The notes under the pieces were generated by a model. The model was not told the origin of the DNA. It made no database searches and was given only the letters and a program-made list of their open reading frames with translations. Shown piece after piece: positions 1 through 8,600 of a stretch of 64,000 bases of DNA (the stretch's first letter is position 1; each line of letters begins with the position of its first letter). Made by a program: the position numbers and the translations under genes. Where the stretch lies: positions 1 to 64,000 of the forward strand of contig NZ_SRPE01000012.1 in the NCBI RefSeq assembly GCF_004785645.1. Direction: 5' to 3'. This DNA is from Empedobacter tilapiae (GTDB taxonomy: Bacteria; Bacteroidota; Bacteroidia; Flavobacteriales; Weeksellaceae).

Positions 1-1
1 T

Positions 2-241
2 CTTAAGAAGATTTTAAATCACCAAGATAAGTTGACTAGAAGCAAAACAGTTTCTTTTACAGAAAAAAAAGATCAAATAAACGAAAGACAATCGCTGATT
101 TTAAAACTTCGATGTGAGGGAAAACAATCGTTTACAACCATTGCTAAGACATTAGAACTTTCTCAGAAAGAAGTACACAATGAATTTATAGTCGCTTATA
201 AATTCACTCAACAAAATAAAGCTCAATCCCTAAACTATTGA
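2..241 (+). CDS. Sigma-factor-like protein, C-terminal fragment (region 4 helix-turn-helix)
   Basis: The reading frame is open from the first bases of the window, so this is the 3' end of a gene that begins upstream. The visible ~79 residues contain ERQSLILKLRCEGK, then TTIAKTLELSQKEVHN, then a short helix. This has the spacing of a sigma-70 region 4 helix-turn-helix, which normally contacts the -35 element and RNA polymerase. Its stop TGA (239-241) overlaps the ATG of the next gene (TGATG), which suggests translational coupling. The next gene encodes a Cas12f/TnpB-type remnant, and ECF sigma factors linked to nuclease-dead Cas12f are known in Bacteroidota. A different HTH protein, such as a transposon regulator, is possible because regions 2 and 3 lie outside the window. 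Confidence 0.55.
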   Translation, partial: LKKILNHQDKLTRSKTVSFTEKKDQINERQSLILKLRCEGKQSFTTIAKTLELSQKEVHNEFIVAYKFTQQNKAQSLNY

Positions 242-474
242 TGATGGAAAAATCTACTTTAATACTCACTCGAAAAATACGATTAATCGTTGATTTACCG
301 ATTGATTTTTGCATCAATAATAAAGCAGGAACGCTTATTTTATTGGATCAAGAAGAAAAGATGGAGCTAGCGAAAGATGAAGAATTTGTATTGAGGAATT
401 GGAGTTATTATGAACTGATGACTAAAATAAAATACAAAGCTGACAAAGCAGGAATTGAGCTTATTATAGCATAA
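241..474 (+). pseudogene. Internally deleted, nuclease-dead Cas12f/TnpB-family remnant (77 aa)
   Basis: The N-terminal ~18 residues (EKSTLILTRKIRLIVDLP) resemble the first strand of Cas12f/TnpB proteins. They run straight into IDFCINNKAGTLILLDQ and FVLRNWSYYELMTKIKYKA, which match the RuvC-II strand and following helix of that family (typically ...GxIxxEDL...W.YY.L...IKYKA...GIEV). The usual 300-400 residues between (REC lobe, RuvC-I) are absent. The catalytic Glu position of RuvC-II is Leu. The protein stops where the zinc finger and RuvC-III should start, so it cannot be a nuclease. The ATG at 241 overlaps the upstream sigma-like gene. It could be a decayed copy or a retained mini-protein; the family assignment rests on motif recognition only. 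Confidence 0.5.
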
Positions 475-485
475 ATTATAATTTT

Positions 486-579
486 GGAGGGTGATTGTAC
501 ACCCATAAGGTGAGGTTGATTACAAACACTCACTAAATGTAAACAACGTATACAACATTTTTATTCCATGTATAGATAG
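486..579 (+). ncRNA. Candidate guide-RNA scaffold downstream of the Cas12f-like remnant
   Basis: Three hairpins follow the stop codon directly. The first is GGGTG(489-493)/CACCC(500-504). The second is GTGAG(510-514)/CTCAC(529-533) with a nested TTG(516-518)/CAA(523-525). The third is AAATGT(535-540)/ACATTT(555-560), enclosing GTATACAAC. TnpB omega-RNAs and the guide RNAs of sigma-linked dead Cas12f are usually encoded just 3' of the protein gene. A short terminal repeat ending in ...CAAC before the guide is also familiar from Cas12f crRNAs. If this reading is right, the guide would start near 557. The boundaries, the guide and expression are inference; no target match was recognised by eye in this window. 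Confidence 0.35.
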
Positions 580-581
580 TA

Positions 582-625
582 GCAGGATACTCCCAACATA
601 AAGGCAGGATAAAGGGAACATAGTG
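582..625. repeat. Imperfect 22-bp tandem repeat, two copies
   Basis: GCAGGATA occurs at 582-589 and 604-611, and AACATA at 595-600 and 617-622, both exactly 22 bp apart. The central five bases differ (CTCCC-like versus AAGGG-like). A third GCAG begins at 626, again on the 22-bp period. The repeat lies in the putative non-coding RNA region. Its function is unknown; it could be a duplicated protein-binding site or RNA element. Confidence 0.55.
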
Positions 626-1018
626 GCAGTAGAATGTATGTAAACGATTTTTGTAGTTCGTGTGATCTAGAATAGTTGTTTTTTTACACCTTAAAACATT
701 CAATGACTGAAATTTATTATGATCATCGAAAATAAAAAAAAAAACTCAAGTCTTTAATCTTAATAAATACTCCCTAGATAAAAGCAGTTAACTATATTCA
801 AATTTTTGTATAAACTTAAAAATAAGATGAATTCAGGAGTAATAATATTCCTTTATTCATTAAAAATAAGTCAATCAGTTTTTATAGTATAATAAATAAC
901 TATTTAATTTACATTCTGTATAAAATAAATTGATTAACTGATAAAACAATTTGATTTTTAATTGATAAGACAAATTATTATATTTATGATATTTACAAAA
1001 CAAAAGTATTAAACATAA

Positions 1019-3250
<2,232 letters not shown>

Positions 3251-5670: not shown

Positions 5671-8600
5671 GGTTTCACTTCTTGATTTTGAGTATTTCTA
5701 TTTGCTCTGTTCGTTCTATTTTTTCTTCTTTTCTCGAAAATTTCTTTGAATTTATCGTAATCTAATGTGATGATAAATCCAACACCTGTTTCTACAATTT
5801 GTCCTTGTAATGCGACTTGGTATTCATCTTTTCGATAAGCTCTTAACATGTATCGACCATCACGAGATAAGCTATAATCAATTGTAATATCACCCGCAAT
5901 ATTAGTCATGTTTTCATTTTCTCGTGCATCACCATCTAAACCAAAATTACTTCCAACCGAAACTTTCAATCGGTCGTTTAATAAACGTTTGCTCACAGCA
6001 ACATTCAGGTCAGTTCGTGTGTTTTTAGAGCCAGAAGAATAATCGTCTTGTGTGTCTAATCCCAAATCGATATCAATTCCTTGGATTAAATCATCCGCCA
6101 AATTATTCAACTGTTGTGACAAAATATTACTTACACTTTGTAGCGCCATTGTTTCTGCGGATACACTTGTTTTACTTTCGAACGGATTTTCGCCAATAAA
6201 ACGATTCAATAACAATAATGCAAAAACCTGTTTGTTCATTTCAGCTTCATCATTTTTCAACTGATCCAATTTCGATTGTGTATTTTCAATAACTGCAGTT
6301 GCAATGGACGGGTTGTCTTTATCCATTGAAATATTGAATTTAATATCAGGTTTTAATAACTCACCTTTCAAAATTAACTCGGTATTAAACGGAATTCGTT
6401 GTTTGTACATGTTCATTTCAGAAGAAGAATAGCCCGAAATTTGTTGTTCGATTAAATCAATAGGAGCGGCTTTTGTTTTGTAAATCGCCGTAATGTCTAA
6501 ATTGGCTGTAGTTGGCTCACCAGTCCATGTAATGGTACTTCCTTTCTGAATATCAAAACGACGTTTTAACAAGCTTACCGAAAGTTCGTACGCACCTTTT
6601 TCTACTTGATAAACGCCAACCAAAGTCATTTTTCCTGAAGGATCCATTCCGCCTGTTAATTCGGCTTCACCTTGTATTTCTACAAAATCTCCGTTGGCTT
6701 TGTCGATGATAATAGACGTTTTGGCTTCTTTACTGATTTCAATGTTTACACTTACATCCAAGCCTTTTATTTTAGATTCGGCTATTAATTCATCTGTTTT
6801 AATCGTTTCTTGAAGCGCCACTTGATCTTGATCGATGAACTCGACAATTCCTTCGCGCTCTTGTAAAGAAGGCGAGGATTGAGGTAAAACAAATGTAAAA
6901 TTCGTGTCATCAGTTACTGTTAAACTTCCGTTTACTTTCGGTAAATCTAAATCACCTTTTATCGTTAAGTTTGCATTGACAGCTAACTTTCCATACATAA
7001 TCGCATCGTTCGATTTTTCTGAATTTACGACATTGAAATCTCGTCCATTTGCTGTTAAATTGAAGGCAAAGTCACGGTAAGTTTCCGTTAAAATTTCTCC
7101 TCTTATCGTTAATGAATTGCCATCGTTGTCATTAATTTTGAATCGATTGAACTCAATTCCTTTGTTCGTGAAATCAATCGCGTCATCAATTTTTCTGAAA
7201 TTACTTCCTGTTTCAGCAATCGTTAAACCAACTTGATTAAATTTGACTTGACCTAAAATACTTGGTTTATCTACTGTTCCAGCGATTTTTAGATTTCCAG
7301 AAATATAACCTTCTGTGTCTTTGATTTGATTCATTGCAAATCCTTGTACCGATTTCATTTCTAATCGATTGATATCTAAAGCTAAATCAAACGCACTTTC
7401 TTTGGTATTATAATCTCCAAAAATCTTCATGTTGTTACTGTTTCCATCTAAGGTAACATCAGCGTTAATCATAGTTGGAGAAGTGTTTTTTACTTTTGCT
7501 ATAATATTTCCAATAGGATTTCCGAAAGCTTTTAAATCTGAAACGGTCAAATCAGCATTAAAGGTCATTTCTTTATTTAAATCTTTAATTTGAGCTGTTC
7601 CATTGATTGTTCCCTCGGCAGGTAAATCATCTTTTTTAATGATTTCTGCAATGGTTTCAATTTTGAGATCTTTGATAGTAATATTCAGCGGACTTGTTCC
7701 TTTTTCCGATTCAGATTGCAATAAAATTTGACTTCCATTGTTCATCAAACTGAAATTATGCGCGACAATTCCGTCTTTTCTCAACTGAATTAAATTTCCT
7801 TCACCAACTTGCCATTGATCGTAGTTTAAAACCAATCCATTCGGATTTAGACTAATTTCCGTTATATCATTCAGTGTTTTTAGATTTCCAGCCACCAAAA
7901 ATTGCGTCGCATCTTTCGCATCCTTTGTCGAAACATTATAATTGATGACATTATTTGTAATATCACCATTCAAATCAATTTTTTGTAATTGAAAACTTTC
8001 ACTTTTTAACGCATCCACATTCAACGAATACAACAAGGCTTCATTTTGGTTGGATAGTTTTAAAACTCCGTTGTTAATTGTATTTGTTCCGTACGTTAAA
8101 TTTGGGATTTTTCCATCAACATTGATTTGTTTTGAATCTGCATCATAAGTTGCGTCAAGTGTCATGGTTTCGAAACTTTTCAAATCTGGAACAAATCTTC
8201 GAATCAATTCATCATCTTTTATTTTTGCATTCAAAGTAAAGAATTGATGAGGTTCTATTTTTTCTTCTTTATTCGGTTTCTGAAATTCATAATATTGGTT
8301 AATAGTTGAAGTTAGCGAACCAAAAATTTGTGTCAATTTAAATTTTCCTTTCATATCCAAATCAGCCAATTGCGAAGTCAAATTAATACGATTAGAATCA
8401 GCAGTTGAAGTTGTAATTAAACTCACTTCTTGCATTGGAAAAACATCTTTTGTATTGGATAATGCAAAGTTTTTCAGGTACAAAGAACCATTTAAATAAT
8501 CTGGATTTAAATCAGCAAAATTGGCATCAATTTCTCCTGCAACAATCATCGGTTCGTTGTAAAAACCAAGTTTTTGAACATCTAATTTGACAATATTTCC

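What the first reader, a model, noticed from the sequence alone, without database searches (positions are those of the whole stretch)
1..579. Sigma-factor region 4 fused by overlap to a nuclease-dead, internally deleted Cas12f-like ORF, followed by a structured RNA
Directly seen: an HTH of sigma region 4 type, a TGATG overlap, then a 77-codon frame. Its N-terminus looks like Cas12f/TnpB and its C-terminus like the RuvC-II helix (FVLRNWSYYELMTKIKYKA), with Leu at the catalytic Glu and a stop before the zinc finger. Hairpins follow. Known: in Bacteroidota, ECF sigma factors genetically linked to dead Cas12f and a guide RNA activate transcription at RNA-specified sites. Inference: this locus is a remnant or a minimal derivative of such an RNA-guided transcription system. 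If the short ORF is retained and expressed, it could be a sigma partner that has lost most of Cas12f.
Basis: partly seen in the sequence, partly recalled or inferred. Interest (0 to 1): 0.9.

Follow-up and report, generated by a model that had tools for sequence, protein, structure and literature searches.

The report
Decayed RNA-guided transcription operon, intact guide
A bacterial gene-switch operon that uses an RNA guide to turn on genes has lost most of its guide-holding protein in this copy, but its guide RNA looks undamaged, and intact copies elsewhere in the same genome could still use it.

Summary
The window begins at a contig end inside an ECF sigma gene. Next comes a 76/77-codon ORF, an in-frame deletion (codons 20-308) of a 365-aa nuclease-dead Cas12f, then an intact guide-RNA scaffold (487-556). 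The same Empedobacter-group genome has four more copies (three intact, one with a stop codon). These proteins match the solved complex 9n9c-9n9q end to end (E=9.7e-175 and 1.7e-85), so this is the known sigmaE-dCas12f RNA-guided transcription family. The stop before the zinc finger is normal for the family; the visible HTH is an extra C-terminal one. The deletion was seen only in this genome. The 76-aa product has no confident fold. The scaffold shows no decay, but its guide has no other near match in the genome. Truncated copies that keep the dCas12f 3' end plus a scaffold recur: 6 of 7 partial copies among 197 family genomes, none N-terminal. Best reading: a dead effector gene beside a probably complete sigma gene and a guide RNA usable in trans. 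A new variant of a known kind.

The parts
2..241 (+). C-terminal 79 codons of an ECF sigma gene (extra C-terminal HTH); the 5' part lies beyond the contig start
   Evidence: identical to the C11 paralogue over all 243 nt before the ATG
241..474 (+). dCas12f remnant ORF (77 aa from ATG 241, 76 aa from ATG 244): codons 1-19 joined in frame to codons 309-365 of a 365-aa dCas12f; junction 300/301
487..556 (+). guide-RNA scaffold, three hairpins, ends ...ATACAAC
   Evidence: model R1, 86.8 bits
557..579 (+). guide segment ATTTTTATTCCATGTATAGATAG, identical to that of the C1 locus; its first 19 nt plus a 5'-G have no other match in the genome at <=3 mismatches. That the guide starts here is inferred from where conservation ends
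580..648 (+). tail of degenerate 11-bp units (AGGATAAAGGC-like) that follows 12 of the 19 scaffolds of the genus (my count) and also occurs alone
   Evidence: unit in a relative
691..737 (+). fragment of a dispersed intergenic repeat of the genus; judged unrelated to the system
1031..3250 (+). katG (catalase/peroxidase) downstream; no relative examined has dCas12f directly before katG
   Evidence: TIGR00198, 1217.7 bits

Best explanation
The left end of the window is one of five sigmaE-dCas12f-guide RNA operons of an Empedobacter-group genome. Shown: this copy has lost codons 20-308 of dCas12f in frame; it keeps the visible sigma end, the dCas12f start and 3' end, and an undamaged guide-RNA scaffold. 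Inferred from the solved relatives and recalled literature: in an intact operon dCas12f binds the scaffold RNA, the segment after ATACAAC base-pairs with DNA beside a 5'-G, and the sigma factor held by dCas12f brings RNA polymerase there. Inferred here: the 76-aa product cannot do this (most of the RNA-binding and RuvC parts are gone), so the gene is dead as an effector. The sigma protein and guide RNA can probably still be made, and the RNA could be loaded by the intact dCas12f copies (C1, C11, C26). Since its guide equals that of C1, its present effect would be one of dose, or none.
For: Five dCas12f and five sigma genes in the genome, two sigma genes being split by contig ends. End-to-end matches to 9n9c_A (E=9.7e-175) and 9n9q_C (E=1.7e-85). 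Window scaffold 86.8 bits against 72.4-90.4 for the 19 scaffolds found in the genus; helix 3 has compensatory changes in 34 sequences. At the three disrupted but scaffold-bearing dCas12f loci of the genus (G000:C4, G000:C14, G004:C28) scaffolds score 86.8, 84.9 and 90.0 bits. 6 of 7 partial dCas12f copies in 197 family genomes reach the 3' end and are followed by a scaffold; none is N-terminal. AF2 of the 76-aa product: mean pLDDT 70.4 for the best model, 48.0-70.4 over five.
Against: The guide has no near match elsewhere in the genome and does not match the putative target element, so it may be inactive. The deletion is in one genome only and may be recent, so an undamaged scaffold does not prove selection. 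The genome of one orphan scaffold (G121) has no full dCas12f. The idea that the 3' coding end is kept because it is part of the guide RNA found no support in synonymous sites. No expression data. The junction lies where C4 and C11 stop being identical, 299 nt from a contig end; I judge it real (0-1 nt of homology at the junction), but no reads were seen.
Confidence: 0.78

Rival explanations
1. Plain decay: the whole copy, guide RNA included, is a non-functional leftover of recent duplication and gene conversion and will be lost.
For: Guide duplicates that of C1; no target found; its best match to an upstream element is 12/18 without a 5'-G; only one genome has the deletion; own C14 and G004:C28 (E. 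falsenii Q1655 by its hit places) also carry broken copies.
Against: Scaffold fully intact; partial copies in the family keep the 3' end plus scaffold (6 of 7) rather than random parts.
Confidence: 0.4
2. The 76-aa product is a retained micro-dCas12f that binds sigma or the scaffold and modulates the intact systems.
For: Deletion is in frame; start, overlap with sigma and stop are kept; against C1 the retained codons differ at 4 synonymous and 1 nonsynonymous codon; the C-terminal helix (residues 55-69) is predicted with block pLDDT of about 71-85.
Against: An in-frame outcome has a 1 in 3 chance; no confident overall fold; not seen in any other of 197 family genomes; differences too few to test selection.
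Confidence: 0.06
3. Assembly artefact: the contig start was wrongly joined to the 3' end of a dCas12f.
For: Junction sits 300 nt from the contig end; C4 and C11 are identical over the first 299 nt, up to the junction.
Against: Homology at the junction is 0-1 nt and it holds a base found at that place in none of the four paralogues, which repeat collapse would not be expected to produce; the 3' part differs from every paralogue (174 nt: 169 identical to C1, 163 to C11, 162 to C26, 166 to C14), so a fifth gene end exists in any case.
Confidence: 0.07
4. An ordinary IS605 TnpB fragment unrelated to sigma.
For: NCBIfam guided_TnpB hit.
Against: Sigma gene overlaps the ORF; end-to-end match of paralogues to the sigma-bound dCas12f in PDB; no zinc-finger domain in the family.
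Confidence: 0.01

Closest known systems
sigmaE-dCas12f-guide RNA system with solved complex PDB 9n9c, 9n9m, 9n9o, 9n9q (publication recalled, not found in the held library)
   Same: Paralogues in this genome match both proteins end to end; same gene order; scaffold after the dCas12f stop; the Allomuricauda taeanensis locus L091 is in the same family
   Different: In the window copy dCas12f lacks codons 20-308; its guide is not of the common GCGTGGGCTC type
TldR, TnpB-derived RNA-guided repressors (PMC13418256: search listing and passages found by term, not the whole text)
   Same: RuvC-inactive TnpB kin used as RNA-guided transcription factor
   Different: The passages describe repression; the three occurrences of 'sigma' found there are a reagent brand, not a sigma factor
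Cas12f / TnpB nucleases (PDB 9nzo, 8hr5 and others)
   Same: Sequence similarity over residues ~85-362 of the full-length paralogue
   Different: In the 9nzo alignment the RuvC-I Asp column holds Ser; no zinc-finger end in the family here

Membership tests
sigmaE-dCas12f RNA-guided transcription operon | ECF sigma gene directly upstream and overlapping | tested here: met
   sigma C-terminus and TGATG overlap; two sigma 5' stubs at other contig ends would complete it
sigmaE-dCas12f RNA-guided transcription operon | full-length 365-aa dCas12f | tested here: not met
   window copy 76 aa, codons 20-308 missing; three of the four paralogues in the genome meet it
sigmaE-dCas12f RNA-guided transcription operon | inactive RuvC, no zinc-finger end | tested here: met
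   for the family: 9n9c_A end-to-end match and Ser at the RuvC-I Asp column of the 9nzo alignment; 364-366 codons in 46 picked genes. In the window copy the RuvC-I stretch is deleted altogether
sigmaE-dCas12f RNA-guided transcription operon | guide-RNA scaffold after the dCas12f stop | tested here: met
   window 487-556, R1 86.8 bits; the model was built with this sequence among 34
sigmaE-dCas12f RNA-guided transcription operon | guide matches a genomic site next to 5'-G | tested here: inconclusive
   only the two scaffold loci themselves at <=3 mismatches in 20 nt including the G; matches of shorter seeds were not searched
sigmaE-dCas12f RNA-guided transcription operon | RNA-guided recruitment of RNA polymerase | not testable with these tools
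   needs experiment
IS200/IS605 TnpB | C-terminal zinc-finger (TNB) domain and nuclease triad | tested here: not met
   Pfam TNB matched only 20 of 60 positions at E=0.058; no Pfam hit at E<=1 for two full paralogues
IS200/IS605 TnpB | TnpA transposase and transposon ends | not tested
   no search made for tnpA

The most novel reading that the evidence does not exclude
Guide RNAs of this system are separable genes that outlive their effector: partial copies keep the dCas12f 3' end plus scaffold and act in trans on intact sigma-dCas12f copies. In the window the same process left a sigma gene, a 76-aa micro-dCas12f and a guide RNA as one operon, and the micro-protein may still modulate sigma or compete for the RNA.
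Probability: 0.25. Interest if true: 0.7.

Novelty: new variant of a known kind. Interest (0 to 1): 0.5.

Why it matters
RNA-guided transcription by sigma and dCas12f is a newly described kind of gene control (recalled). Copies that lose the effector but keep the guide RNA would show how such guide RNAs multiply, change target and are shared between paralogues. The genome offers three intact effectors, one effector with a stop, one deleted effector and six scaffolds in one cell, a natural test bed for guide sharing.

Tried and rejected
1) Dispersed 47-bp element at 691-737 as a target: rejected, it belongs to a long intergenic repeat found at many places in the genus. 2) The 11-bp-unit tail as a target or attachment site: left open; it follows 12 of the 19 genus scaffolds and also stands alone near genes with TPR and HTH_18 domains and SusC clusters. 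3) Guide RNA overlapping the dCas12f 3' coding end, which would explain why that end is kept: synonymous-codon identity is only slightly higher there over all 1021 pairs (0.551 for the last 26 codons against 0.492 for codons 20-308; 31 of 340 windows are as high) and not higher in Empedobacter (0.692 against 0.728; 278 of 340 windows as high), so not supported. 4) Guide-target coevolution: 11 of 46 guides match the element of their own locus better than nearly all shuffles (p<=0.01), but of these 11 only one matches its own element better than every other element, so coevolution was not shown. 5) Rfam: no match for the upstream element; for the window's first 1030 bases only an unrelated chance hit at 241-328 (MIR159, E=0.81) and nothing at gathering score. 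6) Plasmids: no match; phages: two distant hits at 23-26% identity. 7) Papers: the sigma-dCas12f report was not found in the held library; what I say of it is recalled. 8) In one search the C11 row of difference counts is wrong (an index was overwritten); corrected, whose own last line (gap 538) is a failed look-up. The ~94-nt sigma gap is worked out from its other numbers and agrees (residues 1-148 and 181-259 present).

Full report
What is there. The window is contig C4 of a 27-contig, 3.71-Mb genome. Base 1 lies inside a sigma gene: frame 2-241 is the last 79 codons. TGATG joins it to ORF 241/244-474. A structured RNA follows at 487-556.

The short ORF is an internal deletion. The genome holds four other dCas12f loci: C1, C11 and C26 of 365 aa, and C14 with one stop after codon 62. 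The window product matches residues 1-19 and 309-365 of these, so 289 codons are missing in frame. The junction (300/301) has 0-1 nt of homology, and base 300 differs from all four paralogues. C4 and the end of C11 are identical over their first 299 nt, that is up to the junction. The retained 3' part (174 nt) differs from all paralogues (169, 163, 162 and 166 identical to C1, C11, C26 and C14), so a fifth gene end is real whatever the assembly did. The deletion was found in no other genome: 14 of the genus and 197 of the family, both counts including the own genome; the 55 loci show other partial copies, and in the five of them that I searched none keeps the start of the gene.

The sigma gene. 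Besides three complete sigma genes, the genome has two 5' stubs (residues 1-148) at the ends of C26 and C11 and two 3' stubs (181-259) at C4 and the other end of C11. The two 5' stubs share their last 299 nt; about 94 nt are missing between stub types (see Tried and rejected). So the window's sigma gene is probably complete, its first half being on C26 or C11.

Family. phmmer against PDB sequences: the C26 dCas12f matches 9n9c_A 'Nuclease-deactivated Cas12f' (365 aa) over residues 1-364, E=9.7e-175; the C1 sigma matches 9n9q_C 'RpoE' over 1-253, E=1.7e-85. The 46 coding regions that I picked and measured are 364-366 codons long, so the early stop is native. In the alignment with 9nzo the RuvC-I Asp column holds Ser. 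That this is the RNA-guided transcription system in which sigma and dCas12f activate genes beside a 5'-G is recalled; the report was not in the library.

Guide RNA. 34 scaffolds (the window's and 33 from 33 other loci of this genus and other Bacteroidota) align over 75 columns. The three-hairpin structure has 98.3% of cells paired and 5 pairs with changes on both sides, three of them in helix 3. Controls: 0 of 500 shuffles reach the paired percentage or the covariation score and 2 of 500 the count of such pairs, but 397 of 500 reach the number of further pair types. Model R1 finds 19 scaffolds in 7 of 14 genus genomes, the same 7 that have dCas12f; 6 are in the own genome (the search scored 150 of 838-1165 first-look candidates per genome). 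The window's scores 86.8 bits; the range in the genus is 72.4-90.4. In 56 searched sources R1 gives 100 matches at E<=0.1, the last few marginal; many loci have tandem scaffolds.

Guide and targets. The segment after ATACAAC differs between loci. A common type, GCGTGGGCTC-, matches at 14-16 of 18 bases, next to a 5'-G and on the same strand, a conserved ~120-nt hairpin element upstream of the sigma gene. In one search (96 of the 100 scaffolds; the four weakest left out) 9 had such a match of 14 or more at this element; the other matches of 14 or more were mostly sister scaffolds, with six scattered. In one search, 52 guides were given and 46 had an element at their own locus; 11 of the 46 matched it better than nearly all shuffles (p<=0.01), 35 did not. 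In the own genome six such elements lie upstream of a sigma gene (C1), two sigma stubs (C11, C26), two SusC genes (C6, C25; families) and a 129-aa gene without family hits on C12; the SusC genes start about 0.8 and 1.7 kb downstream, the sigma genes of this genome 1.0-2.5 kb. The C26b guide matches the C1 element at 14/18 (0 of 300 shuffles as good). This fits autoregulation plus SusC control but is a lead: own-locus preference was not seen. The window guide, identical to that of C1, matches none of them convincingly: best 12/18 at two elements, no 5'-G, 11 and 18 of 300 shuffles as good. It has no other match in the genome at 3 mismatches in 20. The C11 and C14 guides match none either.

Guide RNAs that outlive the effector. 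In the family search (whole protein as query, E<=1e-5) seven truncated copies appeared: G120, G154 (two), G121, G132:C7, G000:C4 and G000:C12. Not counted as truncated were G005, split by the record's origin, and G004:C28, a full-length copy with stops. Six of the seven reach the 3' end of the gene and have an R1 scaffold right after it; C12 (residues 292-322) has none. None is N-terminal; very short N-terminal pieces would not pass the threshold. Four of the five genomes of these six have a full copy; G121 has none. A second scan (55 loci) gave five more such remnants (L133, L134, L135, L138, L140), all with scaffolds and none with sigma in the held flanks; but its search patterns lie in the C-terminus, so it cannot show asymmetry, and the held flank before L140 is only 145 bases. 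Three of these five genomes have full copies in that list. In tandem arrays 12 of 42 later scaffolds are preceded by a remnant of the last codons, mostly from residue 340, all in Salegentibacter or Gramella records; 30 are not. The window copy is the only truncated one seen that keeps sigma and the dCas12f start.

Is the small protein doing anything? AF2 on 17 aligned sequences: mean pLDDT 70.4 for the best of five, 48.0 for the worst; only the C-terminal part is fairly confident. Against C1 the retained codons differ by 4 synonymous and 1 nonsynonymous change, too few for a test. An in-frame result has a 1 in 3 chance.

Site. katG is found in 13 of 14 genus genomes. Upstream homology with the relatives compared begins between window ~809 (G005) and ~975 (G003). 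By their coordinates none of the six relatives with dCas12f has it directly before katG; in G004 it is about 7.5 kb away on the same contig. Copies differ in place between species.

Verdict. Member by descent, with one defining feature lost. Most likely a dead effector gene beside a probably complete sigma gene and an intact guide RNA that paralogues could use.

Noticed in passing
L009:12690-12825 (-); L083:6097-6237; L177:1701-1830; L178:5873-6002 (-); L179:1920-2055: A ~120-nt hairpin element, without Rfam match, lies upstream of sigma-dCas12f operons in several genera and also of SusC genes; its 3' arm matches the common guide type next to a 5'-G.
   Followed up: partly
window 580-648; L074:8583 and 9527; L077:15374; L079:4568 (-); L009:8271 (-): Tail of 11-bp units (AGGATAAAGGC) that follows 12 of 19 genus scaffolds and also stands alone near TPR/HTH_18 genes and SusC clusters; function unknown.
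   Followed up: partly
window 691-737: Piece of a long dispersed intergenic repeat found many times in genomes of the genus.
   Followed up: partly
L118, L120, L125, L127 (about 6290-6900): Tandem scaffolds separated by copies of the last ~25 dCas12f codons, as if the duplicated unit were 3' coding end plus guide RNA.
   Followed up: partly
L011:4191-5288; L131:1963-3059: Further dCas12f genes with internal stops (G000:C14; E. falsenii Q1655, G004:C28) that still have intact scaffolds.
   Followed up: partly
L009:12944-13222; L178:6104-6406; L183:6933-7211 and others: Small HTH-type genes lie divergently beyond the upstream element at several sigma-dCas12f and SusC loci; only the L009 one was tested (HTH_3, E=2e-10).
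   Followed up: partly
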